A stretch of 34,261 nucleotides of DNA from an uncultured Helicobacter sp. (GTDB taxonomy: Bacteria; Campylobacterota; Campylobacteria; Campylobacterales; Helicobacteraceae): NCBI GenBank assembly GCA_947177485.1, contig CAMWUR010000023.1, forward strand, positions 1 to 34,261, read 5' to 3'. A model generated the notes under the pieces. It made no database searches. It was given only the letters and a program-made list of their open reading frames with translations, and had not been told where the DNA came from. This document shows, piece after piece, positions 24,533-32,857 of the stretch. Numbering within the stretch: position 1 is the first letter of the stretch; each line of letters opens with the position of its first letter. The position numbers were made by a program, and so were the translations under genes.

Positions 24533-26128
24533 CTAGTGTAGTTCTTGGAATCCGCGCAAACTCTCAAGCAGCGCAAGTACTTTTTTGCTCGCAATGATGT
24601 CTTTTGCCGCATAAAAGCCTTCGGCAATGCTTTGCGTTTGCCCATAGAGATAGAGTGCAGCGCCCATATTGAGCGCAACAAGGTCAAGCTTGGGTGAGGG
24701 TTTATTATGGAAAATATCCATCGTAATGCGCGTATTTTTCTCCACACTGCCACCTGCAAGTAGCGAAGAATCGACATAATCAAGCCCCACTTCAAGCGGG
24801 GTAAAGTCAAAACTTTTGATACTGCCGTCTTTAAGCTCCGTGATATGTGTTGGGGCACATAGCGAGATTTCATCATAGCCATCAAATCCACTCACAACAA
24901 GCGCTCGTTGGATACCTAAAATACTCAAGGATTCTGCCATAATGTCAGTATAGCGCCTATCAAACACGCCAATGAGTTGGTGCGTTACATTTGCGGGGTT
25001 GCTCAAAGGTCCAACGAGGTTGAAAGCTGTTCTAAATCCAAGCGATTTGCGCGCGGGGCTCGCGAAACGTAAAGCGGCATGGTATTTTGCAGCATACAAA
25101 AACGCAAAGCCATGCTGACGATACATCGCCAAGGATTGTTCGGCGCTTAGGTTGGTGTCGATTCCTAAGCTCTGTAACAAATCGGCGCTGCCACTCTTGC
25201 TCGTTACCGCTCTGTTGCCATGTTTGATGATATGCACACCCCCACTTGCAAGCAATAAAGCTGTCGTTGTTGAGACATTGAATGTTTTTTGTGCGCTCCC
25301 GCCTGTACCGACAATATCAAGCCGTTTGTCATGGACATCAAGCACCCTAAAAGATAGCGCCTTTTTCTTAAGCAGGCTTGCAAATCCTGCGAGTTCTTCG
25401 CTATTCACACCCTTGACTTCCAAAAGACTTAGAAACGCGCCAATCTGCGCGTCATTGAGCGCGCCTTCGGTGATTTCGTCCATGATATGATAGGCTTCTT
25501 TGAAATTGAGCGATTCAAGGCGCAAAATCTTTTGGAGATAGAGTTGCGTGGGCGGGTTCTCGCGGCGGTAATGCAGGAAGTTTTGCAGCATTTGCATGCC
25601 ATGTTCTGTGCCAATCGATTCGGGGTGAAACTGCAAACCCATGAGCGCATATTCTTTGTGCTCAACAGCCATGACATCGCCATCTTCGCTTGTTGCGGCG
25701 ATGATAAAATCTTCGCTAATCGCTTCTTTTTGACCCACGAGTGAATGGTAGCGCGCCACCTTGACTTTGGGTGGGATATGCCGAAAAAGCCCCTTACCAT
25801 GATGGTCAATCGATTCGACTTTGCCATGTACAATATGTCGAGCATTGACAATCGGAGTACCAAACGCAGCAAGAATCGCCTGATGTCCCAAACAGATTCC
25901 AAGAATCGGAATCTTGCCACAAAAATGCTGCACAACGGCGATAGAAATGCCCGCCTCGCTCGGCGTGCGCGGACCTGGACCAATCAAGATGTGCGTGGGC
26001 TTGAGTGCAGCGATTGCATCGATTGTGATTCTATCGTTGCGCACCACCTTAAGGCTATGCCCAAGCTGTGCGATGGCTTGCGCAATATTGTAGGTAAAAG
26101 AATCATAATTATCAATGAGCAATATCAT
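24533..26128 (-). CDS. trpGD: Bifunctional TrpGD: anthranilate synthase glutaminase/anthranilate phosphoribosyltransferase
   Basis: A 531-residue fusion for the first two steps of tryptophan synthesis. The class I glutaminase (1-190) has Cys79 in LGICLGHQ and the His168/Glu170 pair in LQFHPES. After a short linker, TrpD (about 200-531) has the PRPP-binding DIVGTGGS, the KHGNRAVTSKSGSADLL segment and NLVGPLSNPA. The fused form, as in E. coli and C. jejuni, is the one I would expect in this phylum. Its ATG overlaps the trpE stop by 17 bases, so expression is coupled. trpC, trpF, trpB and trpA are not in this window. Confidence 0.95.
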   Translation of the reverse strand: MILLIDNYDSFTYNIAQAIAQLGHSLKVVRNDRITIDAIAALKPTHILIGPGPRTPSEAGISIAVVQHFCGKIPILGICLGHQAILAAFGTPIVNARHIVHGKVESIDHHGKGLFRHIPPKVKVARYHSLVGQKEAISEDFIIAATSEDGDVMAVEHKEYALMGLQFHPESIGTEHGMQMLQNFLHYRRENPPTQLYLQKILRLESLNFKEAYHIMDEITEGALNDAQIGAFLSLLEVKGVNSEELAGFASLLKKKALSFRVLDVHDKRLDIVGTGGSAQKTFNVSTTTALLLASGGVHIIKHGNRAVTSKSGSADLLQSLGIDTNLSAEQSLAMYRQHGFAFLYAAKYHAALRFASPARKSLGFRTAFNLVGPLSNPANVTHQLIGVFDRRYTDIMAESLSILGIQRALVVSGFDGYDEISLCAPTHITELKDGSIKSFDFTPLEVGLDYVDSSLLAGGSVEKNTRITMDIFHNKPSPKLDLVALNMGAALYLYGQTQSIAEGFYAAKDIIASKKVLALLESLRGFQELH

Positions 26129-27578
26129 TCATGTTCCTCATCGAGCTTGTATCAAGGGATTCTTCGCTTGCACCCCCTGTGATAGCATAGAGCAATGAGC
26201 GCATTTTATTGTGTGTCTCTTGCCATTCCTCGTCTGGATTTGAATCATAGACAATCCCCCCACCTGCTTGTAGGTAATACACGCCATCGCGATACAAGGC
26301 AGTACGCAGAGTGATGCAACTATTGAGATTATTTTTATGGTCGATATAGCCCAAACAGCCGGCATAAAATCCACGCGCATGCGTTTCGAGACGCGCAATC
26401 AATTCAATAGCAGCAATCTTTGGTGCGCCAGAAACCGTGCCTGCAGGAAAGGTAGCATGCAAAATATCACGAATGGTTTTATCTGCACTCAATGTGGCAC
26501 TGATTTCAGACGCGATATGCGTAATCCGCGCCGTTTTTTCAAGGGTCTTGAACTTCTCAACCACAACCGAACCCGGCTTGCTCACCTTTGCAAGATCATT
26601 GCGCCCCAAATCAACAAGCATGAGATGTTCGGCATTTTCTTTGATATTGTCGAGCAATTGCGATTCGAGCACTCTGTCTTCTTCGCGGTCAGCCCCACGT
26701 CTGCAGCTGCCTGCAATCGGGCGCAAGGTGAGTTTGTCGTCATCGAGCTTCACCATAATCTCTGGGCTTGCGCCCAACAAAATAAAATCATCAAAATCAC
26801 AATAGAACATATAGGGACTAGGATTTTCATGACGCAAATTCTTATAGGCTGCAAGCGGAGGCAAGGTGGTGTGCACCTCAAGTGAGCGCGAAGGCACACA
26901 TTGCATGACATTGCCTTGATAAATCTCATCTTGAATCGTGCGCACAAAGTCTTGATATGGAATCTCATGGTCCATAATCGTTGCATGGTGAATCTGTGAT
27001 GTTTGTGGTACATCATTTTGTTGTAACAAATCACAAAGAGAATCGAGCCGCTGTTGTGTAGGGACAAACGATTCTCCTGCATAGCTCAAGCAAAAAAGAT
27101 GTGCAGAATCGTAGAGATGGTCAAATACAAGAATCTCGCGCGGAAATACAAATGCACAATCATAATGTGGAACACGCTTGGGTGCATGAAAAGTGACGTT
27201 TTCGATTTCAGAAAAAAACTCAAATCCCAAATAGCCGATTCCACCAAGTGGGAGCGGAAAATCAAAGTCAGCTTGTACTTCTGGAGCAAATGAGCGAAAA
27301 TGCGCAAGCCATTCAAGATAGTCTTTCGTGCTATCAAGCGCACTCAAATCATGCCGACTCGTTTCATCGAGTAAAAAATATTGTCCCGACTCTTTGATGA
27401 GCATAAAAGCAGGAGCGAGAACAAGCAATGAATAGCGTCCGCGACCACTTGACAAATAGGCAGATTCGAGCAAAAATTTTCCCTTGAGCTTCTCAAATGC
27501 ACTCAAGGGCGTGAGTGTATGCGCCAAAATTTTTTTGTGAATCATCTGCCCACTTGATGTAGGGGCGAGCGGCAACAT
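26112..27578 (-). CDS. trpE: Anthranilate synthase component I
   Basis: Converts chorismate to anthranilate with ammonia from TrpG (488 residues). An N-terminal FLLESA motif corresponds to the tryptophan feedback site LLES, which argues for TrpE rather than PabB. Catalytic chorismate-binding motifs follow: ILLGASPEIMVKL, LRPIAGSCRRG, ENAEHLMLVDLGRNDL, FPAGTVSGAPK and the final QAGGGIVYDSNPDEE. The ATG (27578) overlaps the hsrA stop as TAATG; a second ATG at 27545 is an alternative start. Placement directly behind hsrA, without a separate promoter or leader peptide, suggests that expression depends on hsrA transcription. Confidence 0.93.
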   Translation of the reverse strand: MLPLAPTSSGQMIHKKILAHTLTPLSAFEKLKGKFLLESAYLSSGRGRYSLLVLAPAFMLIKESGQYFLLDETSRHDLSALDSTKDYLEWLAHFRSFAPEVQADFDFPLPLGGIGYLGFEFFSEIENVTFHAPKRVPHYDCAFVFPREILVFDHLYDSAHLFCLSYAGESFVPTQQRLDSLCDLLQQNDVPQTSQIHHATIMDHEIPYQDFVRTIQDEIYQGNVMQCVPSRSLEVHTTLPPLAAYKNLRHENPSPYMFYCDFDDFILLGASPEIMVKLDDDKLTLRPIAGSCRRGADREEDRVLESQLLDNIKENAEHLMLVDLGRNDLAKVSKPGSVVVEKFKTLEKTARITHIASEISATLSADKTIRDILHATFPAGTVSGAPKIAAIELIARLETHARGFYAGCLGYIDHKNNLNSCITLRTALYRDGVYYLQAGGGIVYDSNPDEEWQETHNKMRSLLYAITGGASEESLDTSSMRNMNDIAH

Positions 27579-28255
27579 TAACTATTTGCCTCTTTGGGAT
27601 AGCAAAAACGATAGCCTCTGCGGCGCACGGTTTCAATCGTTGCGATATTAAGCGGCTTGTCCATTTTCTGTCGAATCTGATTAATCGCCACTTCAATCAC
27701 ATTGGGTGTTACAAGCTCGGGCTCCTCCCAAATCGCATCAAGCAATTGCTCTTTGGAAACAATCTGGTCACGGTGACGCGCGAGATGTGTGAGCACTTCA
27801 AACGGCTTGCCTTTGAGCTCGATTTCTTCGCCATTATACGTAATTTTTTCTTCATCGGGATTGATTGTAAGCGATTCGATTTCGATAAGATTTGTACCAC
27901 CAAAGCGCAAGCGCGCTTCGATTCGAGCCACCAAAACATCAAAATCAAAGGGCTTTTTGATATAATCATCTGCTCCTGCTCGAAGTGCCTCTATCTCACT
28001 TTCTTTATCTTCGCGGTCAGAGAGAATCACGACGGCAGTACGAGGAGATTTGGATTTGACGGGCATGATAATGTCGATTCCGTTTCCATCAGGAAGTGTC
28101 CAATCCGTGAGAACCAAGTCATAATTGCGAATGCTAATATAGTACTCGCCATCTTTGAGATTCTCTGCCACATCGGCTTGATAATTTAGTTCTGCAAGCC
28201 CATCTGCAAGGGTCTTGGTTAAGGTAATTTCGTCTTCTATAATGAGTATACGCAT
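27578..28255 (-). CDS. hsrA: HsrA/CosR orphan response regulator (OmpR family)
   Basis: Essential orphan regulator (225 residues) of Campylobacterota. The C-terminal winged-helix domain is nearly identical to what I remember of H. pylori HP1043 and C. jejuni CosR: KGKPFEVLTHLARHRDQIVS, PELVTPNVIEVAINQIRQKM and RRRGYRFCYPK. The receiver has a full acidic pocket, with Glu8/Asp9, Asp51 in LVLTDWTLPDG, Ser79 and Lys101. Published H. pylori HsrA, by contrast, lacks an acceptor Asp. No histidine kinase gene is nearby. A TACAAT box and a tandem TTTAAG-ATTAAC sequence lie upstream; the first gene of the hsrA-trpE-trpGD operon. Confidence 0.95.
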   Translation of the reverse strand: MRILIIEDEITLTKTLADGLAELNYQADVAENLKDGEYYISIRNYDLVLTDWTLPDGNGIDIIMPVKSKSPRTAVVILSDREDKESEIEALRAGADDYIKKPFDFDVLVARIEARLRFGGTNLIEIESLTINPDEEKITYNGEEIELKGKPFEVLTHLARHRDQIVSKEQLLDAIWEEPELVTPNVIEVAINQIRQKMDKPLNIATIETVRRRGYRFCYPKEANS

Positions 28256-28392: not shown

Positions 28393-28956
28393 CTATGCCC
28401 GCAAATCCAGCATCATGTTAACATGCACTGCTTCTCTTGTGGGTGAGGATTCTTGCTCATAGAGAACCCCTGACTCAACCACAATCCGCTTGCTAAACCA
28501 ATGTTGTGTCTCGGGCAGCTGCTCCTCTAGCCCTTCATACTTATATTGTTGGCGCTCCTGCTGTGTGCGGCGCAAGGAATCATTGTTACCATTTGGAACA
28601 AGATTCTTCACAATCGCCCATGCACCATAGCTTTCATCGAGATCAATAAAAAAACCTGAAGATTGCACAGAATCATTGTCTGTATCGCGCAACATCTGCT
28701 GTTCAAAAACCTGAAAATCTTGCTTTAACATCTCGGTATAGTCGCTGTCTTTTGCCATTTTTTGCAAGATATTCACAGGTAGCATGAGATGATTGTTGCC
28801 CTCATTTCTAAAGACATTCTTTACATTTGGAATCCCCACTTCAATCTGCATTCCCGAAAATCTCTGCTTGAGATTCTGCAAAAGCGCATTCGCCTTGGGA
28901 GGGATTCCAGAAAGGCTGTTGTAACTTCGTGTTGCTTTGTTGTTCCAAACTTGCAT
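28393..28956 (-). CDS. Hypothetical protein, possibly sigma54-dependent
   Basis: A 187-residue soluble protein with no signal peptide or membrane segment. I do not recognise a function. It begins MQVWNNKATRSYNSLSG, contains NHLMLPVNILQKMAKDSDY and a stretch FFIDLDESYGAWAIVK, and ends in LDLRA. Its style recalls uncharacterised Campylobacterota proteins of the DUF6033 kind, which I have not been able to check. An AAAGGAGC ribosome-binding site precedes the ATG. A sigma54-type element (28980-28995) sits at the right distance, which would place the gene in the flagellar RpoN regulon of these bacteria. It is 43 bases downstream of the CopD-like gene. Confidence 0.7.
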   Translation of the reverse strand: MQVWNNKATRSYNSLSGIPPKANALLQNLKQRFSGMQIEVGIPNVKNVFRNEGNNHLMLPVNILQKMAKDSDYTEMLKQDFQVFEQQMLRDTDNDSVQSSGFFIDLDESYGAWAIVKNLVPNGNNDSLRRTQQERQQYKYEGLEEQLPETQHWFSKRIVVESGVLYEQESSPTREAVHVNMMLDLRA

Positions 28957-28979
28957 AGTCGCTCCTTTGGAAAAATTTC

Positions 28980-28995
28980 AGCAAAGAACGTTCCA
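28980..28995 (-). promoter_or_regulatory. Candidate sigma54 (-24/-12) promoter
   Basis: The minus strand reads TGGAAC, five bases, TTGCT. This keeps the invariant GG and GC doublets ten bases apart and differs from the TGGCAC-N5-TTGCW consensus at one position. Transcription would begin near 28970, about 14 bases before ATG 28956, with the AAAGGAGC site in that leader. No TATAAT-like box competes. Confidence 0.5.
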
Positions 28996-28999
28996 CGTC

Positions 29000-29440
29000 T
29001 CACCAGCCATAAAAAGCAAATTTTGCCAACACCACAATCAAAAAGCCCAAACAAAGCGCTACGGGGTGAATGATTTTGCTGACCGGATTGGGCTTGTGGA
29101 GAAACTTGCAACTTAGTGAAATGATGACCATGGCGACAATGAGCAATGCAAGGACAATTTTAAGCAACAAGAGACGTTGCAGATTTGTTGCGAAATAGCC
29201 AACATCAGAATTGAAATAGAATCCAAACATTGCTCCGCCTGTGAGAACAAGCAACAAAAGACAAAGGGGCATAATCTTTGTGCCACGTGCAGAAATCACG
29301 GAAAACATGCGATCTGCAAACTCATCGCCAAGCTTTTTGCGCACAAGAGACAGCAGCACAACATCAGTAAAAATAAAGCCCAAAAAAATAATCGCGCAGC
29401 ACAGATGCACAACCAAGAAATAAGGATACATCACCGACAT
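29000..29440 (-). CDS. Four-helix membrane protein, CopD-like
   Basis: A 146-residue integral membrane protein with four hydrophobic helices, at about 5-30, 57-77, 90-110 and 122-142. The first helix contains LVVHLCCAIIFLGFIFTDVVLL, with a histidine, and a pattern seen in small CopD-like proteins of this phylum. The CopD family is linked to copper handling, and related four-helix proteins bind haem; only His12 and one later His are visible, so neither function can be asserted. An AAGGAGGAACA ribosome-binding site precedes the ATG. It stands upstream of the hypothetical gene that has its own sigma54-like promoter. Confidence 0.6.
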   Translation of the reverse strand: MSVMYPYFLVVHLCCAIIFLGFIFTDVVLLSLVRKKLGDEFADRMFSVISARGTKIMPLCLLLLVLTGGAMFGFYFNSDVGYFATNLQRLLLLKIVLALLIVAMVIISLSCKFLHKPNPVSKIIHPVALCLGFLIVVLAKFAFYGW

Positions 29441-30461: not shown

Positions 30462-31307
30462 ATGCGACTTTTATTTCTATTCCTCATGAGCTTTGTATGT
30501 GCTAAACCTATTGTGAGTGTCAGCATTCCCCCGCAAGCATTTTTTGTGGAGCAGATTGCAGGCGATTTGTTTGAAATTCAAATCATCATTCCGCCTAATA
30601 CCGATGAGCATAACTTTGAGCTCAAGCCTCAAACCATGCAAGCACTCGAAAAAAGCACCATCTATTTCACGATTGGCTTAGAACTCGAGTCTGTATTGCT
30701 ACAAAAATTGCAACAATATAAAAATATTCGGATTGTCCCAACCAACAAAGGGCTTGCGAGTTTGCCAAACATGCACAGCGCGCACGAGCATGCGCACGAC
30801 CATGAACATGGCGAGAACGACCCGCATATCTGGCTTGACCCAATCTTGGTTCAAGAACAGGCGAGAATCATCGCGCATGCACTTGGAGAACGTTTCGCGA
30901 AAAACAAAGATGTCTTTATGAAGAATCTTGAGATTTTTCAAGCAAAACTTACAGAACTTGACGCGCAGATTCGCGAGCAATTTAAGGATAAAACATTTAG
31001 AGATTTTATCATCTACCACCCCTCGTGGGGATATTTCGCACATCGCTATGACTTGCGTCAGATTCCGATAGAAATCGAGGGCAAAGAGCCCAAACCAAGA
31101 GACTTGCAACGTCTGATGAAACGTATCGAGAGAGAAAATTTCCGCGCGATTTTCGTCCAACAAGGATTCCCCGATTCACTCGCAAAAACCATTGCGCAGA
31201 GTTGTAAGGGTTGCAATATTGAGATTCTCACGCTCGACCATCTCGCAGAGGACTGGGAACAGAATCTGCTTGAATCGGCACGCAAGATTGCCCAAAGCTT
31301 GCAATGA
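30462..31307 (+). CDS. znuA: Zinc ABC transporter periplasmic-binding protein
   Basis: Cluster A-I metal-binding protein (281 residues) that captures zinc in the periplasm and hands it to ZnuB. Signal peptide MRLLFLFLMSFVCA. A histidine-rich loop (HSAHEHAHDHEHGENDPH, about residues 106-123) is the mark of zinc rather than manganese proteins. Candidate ligands are His in TDEHNFELKP, DPHIWLD, and His in YHPSWGYFAH. The start is ATG 30462 after CAAGGATT; a GCTACAAAT sequence at 30431-30439 may be part of its promoter. znuC begins 7 bases after its stop. A Zur or Fur site could not be identified by eye. Confidence 0.9.
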   Translation: MRLLFLFLMSFVCAKPIVSVSIPPQAFFVEQIAGDLFEIQIIIPPNTDEHNFELKPQTMQALEKSTIYFTIGLELESVLLQKLQQYKNIRIVPTNKGLASLPNMHSAHEHAHDHEHGENDPHIWLDPILVQEQARIIAHALGERFAKNKDVFMKNLEIFQAKLTELDAQIREQFKDKTFRDFIIYHPSWGYFAHRYDLRQIPIEIEGKEPKPRDLQRLMKRIERENFRAIFVQQGFPDSLAKTIAQSCKGCNIEILTLDHLAEDWEQNLLESARKIAQSLQ

Positions 31308-31314
31308 TTGCGCC

Positions 31315-32067
31315 ATGCAACTCTTTCATATTTCGCATCTCAACTACCACTATGGCAGCGAGGAGATTCTACACGACATCAATCTAGAATATGACAATCA
31401 AGATTTTCTCGCCATTATAGGACCAAATGGCGGAGGAAAATCAACTTTGATGAAAATCATCTTATCACTTTTGCCAACCAAAAATGCCATTTTTTTAGAC
31501 CATATCCAACAAAAAGATATGGGCTATGTACCACAAAATACATTAGCAAATCCAAACTTTCCCATTCGCGTTCTTGATGTTGTTTTGATGGGGCTTATCA
31601 ACCAAAAAATATGGGGATTTTATACCAAAAAGGACAGACAAAAAGCCTTGCAGATTCTACAAAAAGTCGGCATGCAAGATTATTGGGATAAGCGCATGGA
31701 TACCCTAAGCGGCGGGCAGCGCCAACGCGTGTTTATCGCGCGAGCGCTCGTGAGCAAGAGTAAGCTCATGCTGCTCGATGAACCCACAGCGAGCCTTGAT
31801 TCTAAAAGCGCCATTCAAATCTACGAGCTGCTCAACACCTTGCATGGCGAAGGAGTGGGAATCATCACAATTTGTCATGACATCAATCTTGTCCTTGCAT
31901 ACTGCAATAAAATCGCCTATCTCAACAAACAACTTTTTTTGCATGAAAACACAAAAGAACAATCCAAAACTGACTTTCTCAAACATCTTGAAAATCATCA
32001 TCATCATTTTTGCTCCGTTGAGATGAGTCTCAAAGAATGTCCTTGCGAAAGACATGAACATGGTTGA
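31315..32067 (+). CDS. znuC: Zinc ABC transporter ATP-binding protein
   Basis: ATPase of the ZnuABC importer (250 residues). Walker A GPNGGGKST (36-44), signature LSGGQRQR and Walker B LMLLDEPTASLD are intact, followed by a switch His in TICHDINL. A His-rich C-terminus (ENHHHHFCS and a final CERHEHG) suggests zinc binding or regulation. An open frame extends upstream to 31192, but MQLFHISHLNYHYG at 31315 is the family start and lies just after znuA. The last 14 bases overlap znuB. Confidence 0.93.
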   Translation: MQLFHISHLNYHYGSEEILHDINLEYDNQDFLAIIGPNGGGKSTLMKIILSLLPTKNAIFLDHIQQKDMGYVPQNTLANPNFPIRVLDVVLMGLINQKIWGFYTKKDRQKALQILQKVGMQDYWDKRMDTLSGGQRQRVFIARALVSKSKLMLLDEPTASLDSKSAIQIYELLNTLHGEGVGIITICHDINLVLAYCNKIAYLNKQLFLHENTKEQSKTDFLKHLENHHHHFCSVEMSLKECPCERHEHG

Positions 32068-32857
32068 GATTCTTACATTTGAGTTTTTTCAAAATGCCAT
32101 TTTGGCAAGCGTCCTTGTCAGCATTGCCTGTGGAATCATTGGTTCTCTTATCATGATTAACCGCCTCTTTTCAATGGCAGGCGGAATCACACACGCCGCC
32201 TTTGGAGGGATTGGAATCGCGTTTTATTTTGGATTGCCCTTGTTTATTTCAACCTCTCTATTTACACTTTTTATCGGATTTCTAGTCGCTTTTCTGACAC
32301 AGCACAAACCGCATCGAAGCGATAGCATTATCGCTGTGATTTGGGCATTTGGCATGGCTTTGGGGCTCATTTTGCTTGACCTTACTCCGGGCTACAAAAG
32401 CGACATCATGGCATATCTTTTTGGGAGCATTCTAGCAATTTCAAAACAAGATTTAAACATCATGCTTATTTCGGATTGCATTTTTGCCCTTCTTATCACC
32501 CTCTTCTATCGTCAATTTGAAGCCATTAGCTTTGATAGAGACTTTGCGCAGACAAAAGGTGTCGCCACAACCTTTTTTCACTATCTCCTTATCGCAATGA
32601 TTGCGTTTTGTATCGTCATTTGCATTAAGGCTGTCGGGCTCATTTTGGTCATCGCCCTGCTCTCAATCCCCTGCTTCATCGCCGAAACATTCACCAAAAA
32701 GCTCGGCTCGATGATGCTTGTGGCAAGCTGCTTGAGTCTGCTCTTTTGCCTCGTTGGGCTCACGCTTAGCTACTATGCCAACCTAACAAGCAGCGCGATG
32801 ATTATCATGGTCGCATGTGTGGGATTCGCATTGTGCCTGCTGCCGCGCTCGCACTAA
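32054..32857 (+). CDS. znuB: Zinc ABC transporter permease
   Basis: Membrane permease (267 residues) of the ABC-3 family, with about eight to nine hydrophobic helices and the family motif GGITHAAFGGIGIAFYFG. The EAA-like coupling loop around FEAISFDRDFAQTKGV contacts ZnuC. Two ATG codons, 32054 and 32060, are possible; either overlaps the znuC end, so translation is coupled. Together with the preceding genes it forms a complete zinc importer operon. Confidence 0.93.
   Translation: MNMVEILTFEFFQNAILASVLVSIACGIIGSLIMINRLFSMAGGITHAAFGGIGIAFYFGLPLFISTSLFTLFIGFLVAFLTQHKPHRSDSIIAVIWAFGMALGLILLDLTPGYKSDIMAYLFGSILAISKQDLNIMLISDCIFALLITLFYRQFEAISFDRDFAQTKGVATTFFHYLLIAMIAFCIVICIKAVGLILVIALLSIPCFIAETFTKKLGSMMLVASCLSLLFCLVGLTLSYYANLTSSAMIIMVACVGFALCLLPRSH

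What the first reader, a model, noticed from the sequence alone, without database searches (positions are those of the whole stretch)
28393..28995. Hypothetical gene under a probable sigma54 promoter
A TGGAAC-N5-TTGCT element sits 24 bases ahead of the ATG of an unknown 187-residue protein. In this phylum RpoN mainly drives flagellar genes, so the product could be an undescribed flagellar or motility factor.
Basis: partly seen in the sequence, partly recalled or inferred. Interest (0 to 1): 0.55.

Follow-up and report, generated by a model that had tools for sequence, protein, structure and literature searches.

The report
Flagella-co-regulated DUF6033 accessory protein gene
A small unknown gene in a Helicobacter genome is very probably switched on together with the flagellum genes, and the company it keeps suggests that its protein is a cargo that leaves the cell through the flagellum rather than a part of the motor.

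Summary
TGGAACGTTCTTTGCT lies at 28995-28980 on the minus strand, 23 bases before the ATG of a 187-codon ORF. One exact match in the window is itself no surprise (0.76 expected), but the element is intergenic, correctly placed, and kept in three relatives while its spacer changes. The protein is a divergent DUF6033 member (Pfam score just below cut-off; two orthologues above it). Of nine DUF6033 units in five genomes of the genus, six have an exact sigma54 element, two a one-mismatch form, one a sigma28-like box; several in other genera have sigma28-like boxes. The genome has one RpoN and one strong sigma54 activator, FlgR-like, so the promoter very probably belongs to the flagellar regulon. 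It is not a core flagellar part: most flagellated relatives lack it. The same regulon holds relatives of proteins that in Campylobacter need the flagellum to reach the supernatant, and its proteins, this one included, have polar N-termini. I read it as a flagellum-co-expressed, probably flagellum-exported accessory protein. Promoter and regulon: strong. Export: inference. DUF6033 and PF19498 occur in no paper of the library searched.

The parts
28980..28995 (-). sigma54 (RpoN) -24/-12 promoter element TGGAAC-GTTCT-TTGCT
   Evidence: Only exact match in the window; consensus positions conserved in G003, G001 and G004 while the spacer varies
28969..28969 (-). predicted transcription start (about 12 bases past the -12 GC; +/- 2), giving a leader of about 13 nt
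   Evidence: Inference from the usual spacing of sigma54 promoters (recalled); not measured
28962..28968 (-). ribosome-binding site AAAGGAG
   Evidence: Read from the sequence; identical in G003 and G001
28393..28956 (-). 187-codon gene, divergent DUF6033 family protein (P0001)
   Evidence: Pfam PF19498 E 8e-5, 23 bits against cut-off 25; orthologues G003 27.6 and G004 27.4 bits, above it; profile comparison with other DUF6033 proteins 97.2%
28558..28899 (-). stretch matching the DUF6033 profile (residues 20-133), with the motifs NILQKMAKD and SSGFF(I/V)(D/N)LD
28396..28410 (-). C-terminal tail LDLRA, of a type shared with other DUF6033 proteins and the unrelated DUF4885-like protein
   Evidence: 17 of 340 ORFs carry the tail, 13 of them DUF6033 and 2 DUF4885-like; the pattern was chosen after seeing the sequences

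Best explanation
The gene is a class-2 (RpoN/FlgR-dependent) member of the flagellar regulon. When the flagellar export gate is built, FlgR activates sigma54-polymerase at TGGAAC-N5-TTGCT and a short-leader mRNA for one DUF6033 protein is made. The protein is not a core flagellar part. Most likely it is an accessory substrate of the flagellar type III export apparatus: a polar N-terminus without acidic residues serves as the export signal, and the conserved middle domain acts outside the cell or in the flagellar lumen or sheath. Supported here by sequence: promoter, conservation, family, regulon. Inferred: activation by FlgR, export and any external role.
For: Promoter: exact, intergenic, correctly spaced, conserved with a variable spacer in three relatives, although the next gene upstream differs in G003. 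Family: of nine DUF6033 transcription units in the five genomes of the genus, six have an exact sigma54 element, two a conserved one-mismatch AGGAACAC(C/G)ATTTGCT, one a sigma28-like ACCGATAT. Of 14 DUF6033 genes outside the sigma54 units, 6 have CGATAT at -30 to -37, against 7 of 422 background ORFs (Fisher 5e-7). Regulator: one RpoN; the only strong Sigma54_activat match is a receiver plus AAA+ protein of 380 aa with no DNA-binding domain found after the lid, the anatomy described for H. pylori FlgR (PMC3930126, passages). Regulon: 82 exact sites against 9 for the reversed pattern; at least 22 lie 20-60 bases before an ORF with a Shine-Dalgarno, among them flagellins, FlgL-type and rod-type proteins and the HP1076 FliS co-chaperone. 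Export: the regulon includes two Cj0814-family relatives and, at a gap of 135, a SprA-related protein; in C. jejuni, SprA-related CJM1_0395, and CJM1_0791 (Cj0814 by my reading), need the flagellum to appear in supernatants (PMC5223770, abstract and passages). N+S+T+Q in residues 2-31 is 0.40 in the target; none of 28 window control ORFs reaches that; all 22 sigma54-preceded ORFs against controls P = 1.6e-6.
Against: No expression or secretion data. The predicted leader is only about 13 nt, with the ribosome-binding site starting at about +2. Only 2 of 9 Cj0814-like matches in the genome (C46 and one of three on C26) had a sigma54 element ahead of them where examined, both below the NCBIfam cut-off, so that family is not sigma54-driven as a rule. 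The authors of PMC5223770 warn that CJM1_0791 is a putative lipoprotein whose absence could be indirect. N-terminal composition is a weak predictor (a cytoplasmic co-chaperone, L018, scores the same 0.40), and the window controls are longest ORFs, some perhaps mis-started. Eight of 14 DUF6033 genes outside the sigma54 units lack CGATAT at that place; several have a TATAAT-like box. Structure prediction failed (mean pLDDT 42.6).
Confidence: 0.6

Rival explanations
1. Cytoplasmic partner: the protein is in the flagellar regulon but stays inside as a chaperone, assembly helper or regulator, as HP1076 (FliS co-chaperone) does in the same regulon.
For: A sigma54-preceded FliS_cochap/HP1076 homologue is present (L018, E 6e-20); the C. 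jejuni orthologue Cj1650 falls in an rpoN mutant (PMC3353397, passages). The HP1076-like protein has the same N-terminal polarity, 0.40, so polarity does not exclude this.
Against: No similarity to a chaperone family. Patchy distribution with paralogue expansion fits cargo better than core export machinery.
Confidence: 0.22
2. Structural or sheath accessory: the protein is exported but stays bound to hook, filament or sheath and tunes motility.
For: Same regulon as hook and filament genes; the LD(V/L/I)(R/K)A tail resembles that of a 72-aa Flg_bbr_C protein ending LLDIKA in the same genome.
Against: No flagellar structural domain in P0001; missing from most flagellated relatives.
Confidence: 0.1
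3. The sigma54 match is a chance occurrence and the gene has a housekeeping promoter.
For: 0.76 exact matches are expected in the window.
Against: Position, conservation with a variable spacer, and recurrence ahead of paralogues and orthologues.
Confidence: 0.05

Closest known systems
DUF6033 (Pfam PF19498)
   Same: Central residues 20-133 match; orthologues score above the cut-off; shared NILQKMAxD and SGFxI motifs.
   Different: P0001 itself scores 23 bits against a cut-off of 25; its C-terminal part aligns poorly with other members.
C. jejuni flagellar co-expressed determinants (Feds)
   Same: Non-structural proteins driven by a flagellar sigma factor.
   Different: Feds are described as sigma28-dependent (PMC5223770, passages); here the promoter is sigma54-type. 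No sequence relation was tested.
CiaC (Cj1242) of C. jejuni
   Same: RpoN-dependent gene, annotated hypothetical, whose product is secreted by the flagellar apparatus (PMC3353397, passages).
   Different: No sequence relation tested; secretion of P0001 is not shown.
HP1076/Cj1650 FliS co-chaperone (PF16522)
   Same: Small non-structural protein of the same RpoN regulon.
   Different: P0001 does not match PF16522; the genome's own HP1076-like protein is L018.
Cj0814 family (NF046095) and SprA-related (PF12118) proteins
   Same: Members lie behind sigma54 elements in the same genome.
   Different: Different protein families; profile comparison of DUF6033 with the Cj0814-like set is negative (0.7%).

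Membership tests
DUF6033 (PF19498) | Profile score at or above the gathering cut-off of 25 bits | tested here: inconclusive
   P0001 23.0 bits, below; orthologues G003 27.6 and G004 27.4 bits, above
DUF6033 (PF19498) | Homology of the P0001 group to other members | tested here: met
   Profile-profile 97.2%, E 4e-11 over 87 columns against nine other DUF6033 proteins; one of the nine, L062, itself scores 23.9 bits
RpoN-dependent flagellar regulon | -24/-12 element correctly placed and conserved | tested here: met
RpoN-dependent flagellar regulon | RpoN and an FlgR-type activator in the genome, without other strong activators | tested here: met
   three further weak matches to PF00158 (E 1e-7 to 1e-3, in frames of 477-861 aa) were read as other AAA+ proteins and not examined
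RpoN-dependent flagellar regulon | Loss of transcript in an rpoN mutant | not testable with these tools
   No expression data
Flagellum-exported accessory proteins (Fed/Cia-like) | Flagellum-dependent presence outside the cell | not testable with these tools
   Only N-terminal composition and regulon company
Core flagellar component | Present wherever flagella are present | tested here: not met
   4 of 59 genomes with the single-sequence search; flagellin in 121 of 121 family genomes

The most novel reading that the evidence does not exclude
DUF6033 and DUF4885-like proteins are cargo classes of the Campylobacterota flagellar export apparatus. They are wired to whichever flagellar sigma factor the lineage uses (sigma54 here, sigma28 in other genera) and carry a common C-terminal tail, hydrophobic-D/N-hydrophobic-R/K-A/V-COOH, that a shared chaperone, sorting or processing factor reads. 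In this genus the cargo set has grown into an arsenal.
Probability: 0.15. Interest if true: 0.65.

Novelty: new member of a known kind. Interest (0 to 1): 0.42.

Why it matters
It gives a first functional context, the flagellar regulon, to a domain of unknown function for which the library searched holds no paper, and a short list of testable candidates for flagellum-dependent export in Helicobacter. It also suggests that one accessory family has moved between sigma54 and sigma28 control while staying tied to the flagellum, which would say that the timing of its expression, not one particular promoter, is what is selected.

Tried and rejected
Rejected: chance promoter (conservation and recurrence); core flagellar part (distribution); LigD_N and other weak Pfam/NCBIfam hits (E 0.02-0.06); a solved-structure relative (only hit E 0.87, a calmodulin chain); homology of DUF6033 to the Cj0814-like or DUF4885-like proteins (0.7% and 2.3%); a DUF6033 relative on plasmids (one query, L063:4286-4963, no match). 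Presence against flagellation is uninformative because all 121 family genomes have flagellin.

Led nowhere: AlphaFold2 with four sequences gave mean pLDDT 42.6, so no fold search was run. The genome-contig scan returned three named relatives only. A genome-wide DNA pattern for the C-terminal tail gave 16 matches against 9 for the reversed control. Five end ORFs of at least 60 codons, the target included: a Flg_bbr_C mini-protein and three others (L174, L175, L180) whose families were not scanned. Of these four, three had no sigma54 site or sigma28-like box near the start, and the start of the fourth (L175) lay outside the fetched stretch, so this does not support the tail as a mark of the regulon.

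Selection to know: the first N-terminal test used 12 hand-picked unknown proteins; one search repeats it with all 22 ORFs that I had listed at a gap of 20-60. Sites inside long genes were dropped as promoters by reading, and weaker cases (L019, L024, L103, L110, L120, L121, L122, L136) were left out. The 22 are a minimum: one search shows a further site (L106, contig C26) just before an internal Met of an ORF that one search had counted as 'inside a gene'. The sigma28 background of 422 ORFs includes DUF6033 genes themselves, which makes the test conservative.

Full report
The observation. On the minus strand the window reads gacgTGGAACgttctTTGCTgaaatttttccAAAGGAGcgactATG. The ORF 28393-28956 has 187 codons. 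The element, 28980-28995, lies in the 43 bases between this ATG and the stop of the next ORF upstream, at 29000. It is the only exact match to TGGNAYN5TTGCW in the window, but 0.76 are expected by chance, so the match alone proves little.

Why the promoter is believed. In genomes G003 and G001, whose orthologues are 84% identical, all consensus positions are the same (TGGAACACTCTTTGCT, TGGAACGCTCTTTGCT), the spacer varies, and the gap to the ATG is identical. In G004 (37% identity over the alignment; 42% in the matched stretch) the element is TGGAATACTATTTGCT, 40 bases before the ATG. In G003 the next gene upstream is a different one, so promoter and gene stay together while the neighbour changes. 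Named records of these relatives are Helicobacter sp. Mgla_MAG_ref_184, an uncultured Helicobacter and Helicobacter sp. 15-1451.

What the protein is. Pfam gives DUF6033 at 23 bits (cut-off 25); the orthologues of G003 and G004 exceed the cut-off. Profile comparison with other DUF6033 proteins gives 97.2%. The genome has four DUF6033 matches in three units: the target; a run of three ORFs on contig C29 whose first two score 83.5 and 87.6 bits (the third is not recognised by Pfam); and a short one on C47. C29 has an exact element 32 bases before the likely ATG; C47 has a one-mismatch element AGGAACACGATTTGCT that its G003 counterpart keeps as AGGAACACCATTTGCT. Of nine units in the five genomes of the genus, six have exact elements, two the one-mismatch form, and one (G001 C9, a tandem pair) a sigma28-like ACCGATAT instead.

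Other genera. In a sample of 397 genomes of the phylum, 15 match DUF6033 at E <= 0.001, 13 of them with a match over the cut-off. Of 14 DUF6033 genes outside the sigma54 units, none has an exact sigma54 element within 120 bases, while six have CGATAT at -30 to -37, as do 7 of 422 background ORFs (P = 5e-7). CGATAT is, from recall, the core of the Campylobacterota sigma28 -10 element. Some of these genes are orthologues of each other, so they are not independent; eight of 14 lack the exact box, and some of these have a TATAAT-like box.

The regulon. The genome has one RpoN. Of four matches to the sigma54-activator domain only one is strong; it has a receiver, the AAA+ domain and its lid, and no further domain was found behind it, as described for H. 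pylori FlgR, which lacks a DNA-binding domain (PMC3930126, passages). There are 82 exact sites, against 9 for the reversed pattern. Most lie inside genes. At least 22 lie 20-60 bases before an ORF with a Shine-Dalgarno. Recognised among these are a flagellin-like protein, FlgL-type and rod-type proteins and the FliS co-chaperone, a FlaB-type flagellin, and by eye FlgI and FliK. An HP1233-family protein is over its cut-off; HP1233 and HP1120 appear among genes changed in an H. pylori csrA mutant in which rpoN falls (PMC5368276, passages). In C. jejuni 17 genes fall in an rpoN mutant: 12 flagellar, two (Cj0040, Cj1465) within flagellar clusters, and Cj0243c, CiaC and the HP1076 orthologue (PMC3353397, passages).

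Why export is the favoured function. Two sigma54-preceded proteins match the Cj0814 'flagellar-dependent secreted' family below its cut-off, and one, at a gap of 135, is SprA-related. In C. jejuni CJM1_0395 (SprA-related) and CJM1_0791 depend on the flagellum for presence in supernatants (PMC5223770, abstract and passages); that CJM1_0791 equals Cj0814 is my inference, and the authors allow that its loss may be indirect. The genome has nine Cj0814-like matches and only two of them showed a sigma54 element. The first 30 residues after Met of the 22 sigma54-preceded proteins are rich in N, S, T and Q (0.35 against 0.175 in 28 window ORFs, P = 1.6e-6); the target has 0.40, above every control, and no acidic residue. 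The group includes flagellar proteins and a co-chaperone, so it supports export only modestly.

Not a core flagellar part. The single-sequence search finds the gene in 4 of 59 genomes, all of one genus, while flagellin is in 121 of 121 genomes of the family and in all 15 DUF6033 carriers tested.

A side observation. The target ends in LDLRA. Of 340 ORFs of at least 150 codons in the fetched loci, 17 end in [LIMV][DNE][VILMT][RKQES][AVIMS]; 13 are DUF6033 proteins and two are the DUF4885-like pair L119/L164, which show no homology to DUF6033. L119 has a sigma54 element in this genome, and the L164 protein lies next to a DUF6033 gene in G270. The pattern was drawn after seeing the sequences, some of the 13 are orthologues, and a genome-wide follow-up did not tie the tail to sigma54 promoters.

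Novelty. DUF6033, PF19498 and DUF4885 occur in none of the papers of the library. The kind of thing, a non-structural gene in the flagellar regulon with a possibly exported product, is known from Campylobacter. I therefore score it as a new member of a known kind.

Noticed in passing
L155, L156, L157, L158 (G000 contigs C1, C26, C57, C46): Nine Cj0814-family matches in clusters, next to small proteins with Sec-like signal peptides; a C39-peptidase-like gene lies in the C26 cluster (L156:5433-6002) and in the G090 cluster (L162:179-802). It looks like an expanded secretion-linked gene set.
   Followed up: partly
L063 upstream of 5739 (G000 C29); L077 upstream of the DUF6033 gene (G270): Homopolymer tracts (a run of C upstream of the sigma54 site; a run of G just before a TATAAT-like box) ahead of DUF6033 genes, possibly phase-variable.
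   Followed up: no
window 28396-28410; L119; L164; L165: Shared C-terminal tail LD(V/L/I/M)(R/K)(A/V) in DUF6033 and unrelated DUF4885-like proteins; a 72-aa protein with a flagellar rod C-terminal domain ends LLDIKA.
   Followed up: partly
L108:762-1967 (G000 C27): A 402-residue sigma54-preceded protein with an EF-hand-like stretch just below the Pfam cut-off and a very polar N-terminus.
   Followed up: no
window 24533-28255 and 30462-32857: Ordinary neighbours: anthranilate synthase and phosphoribosyltransferase genes, an OmpR-type response regulator, a zinc ABC transporter.
   Followed up: no
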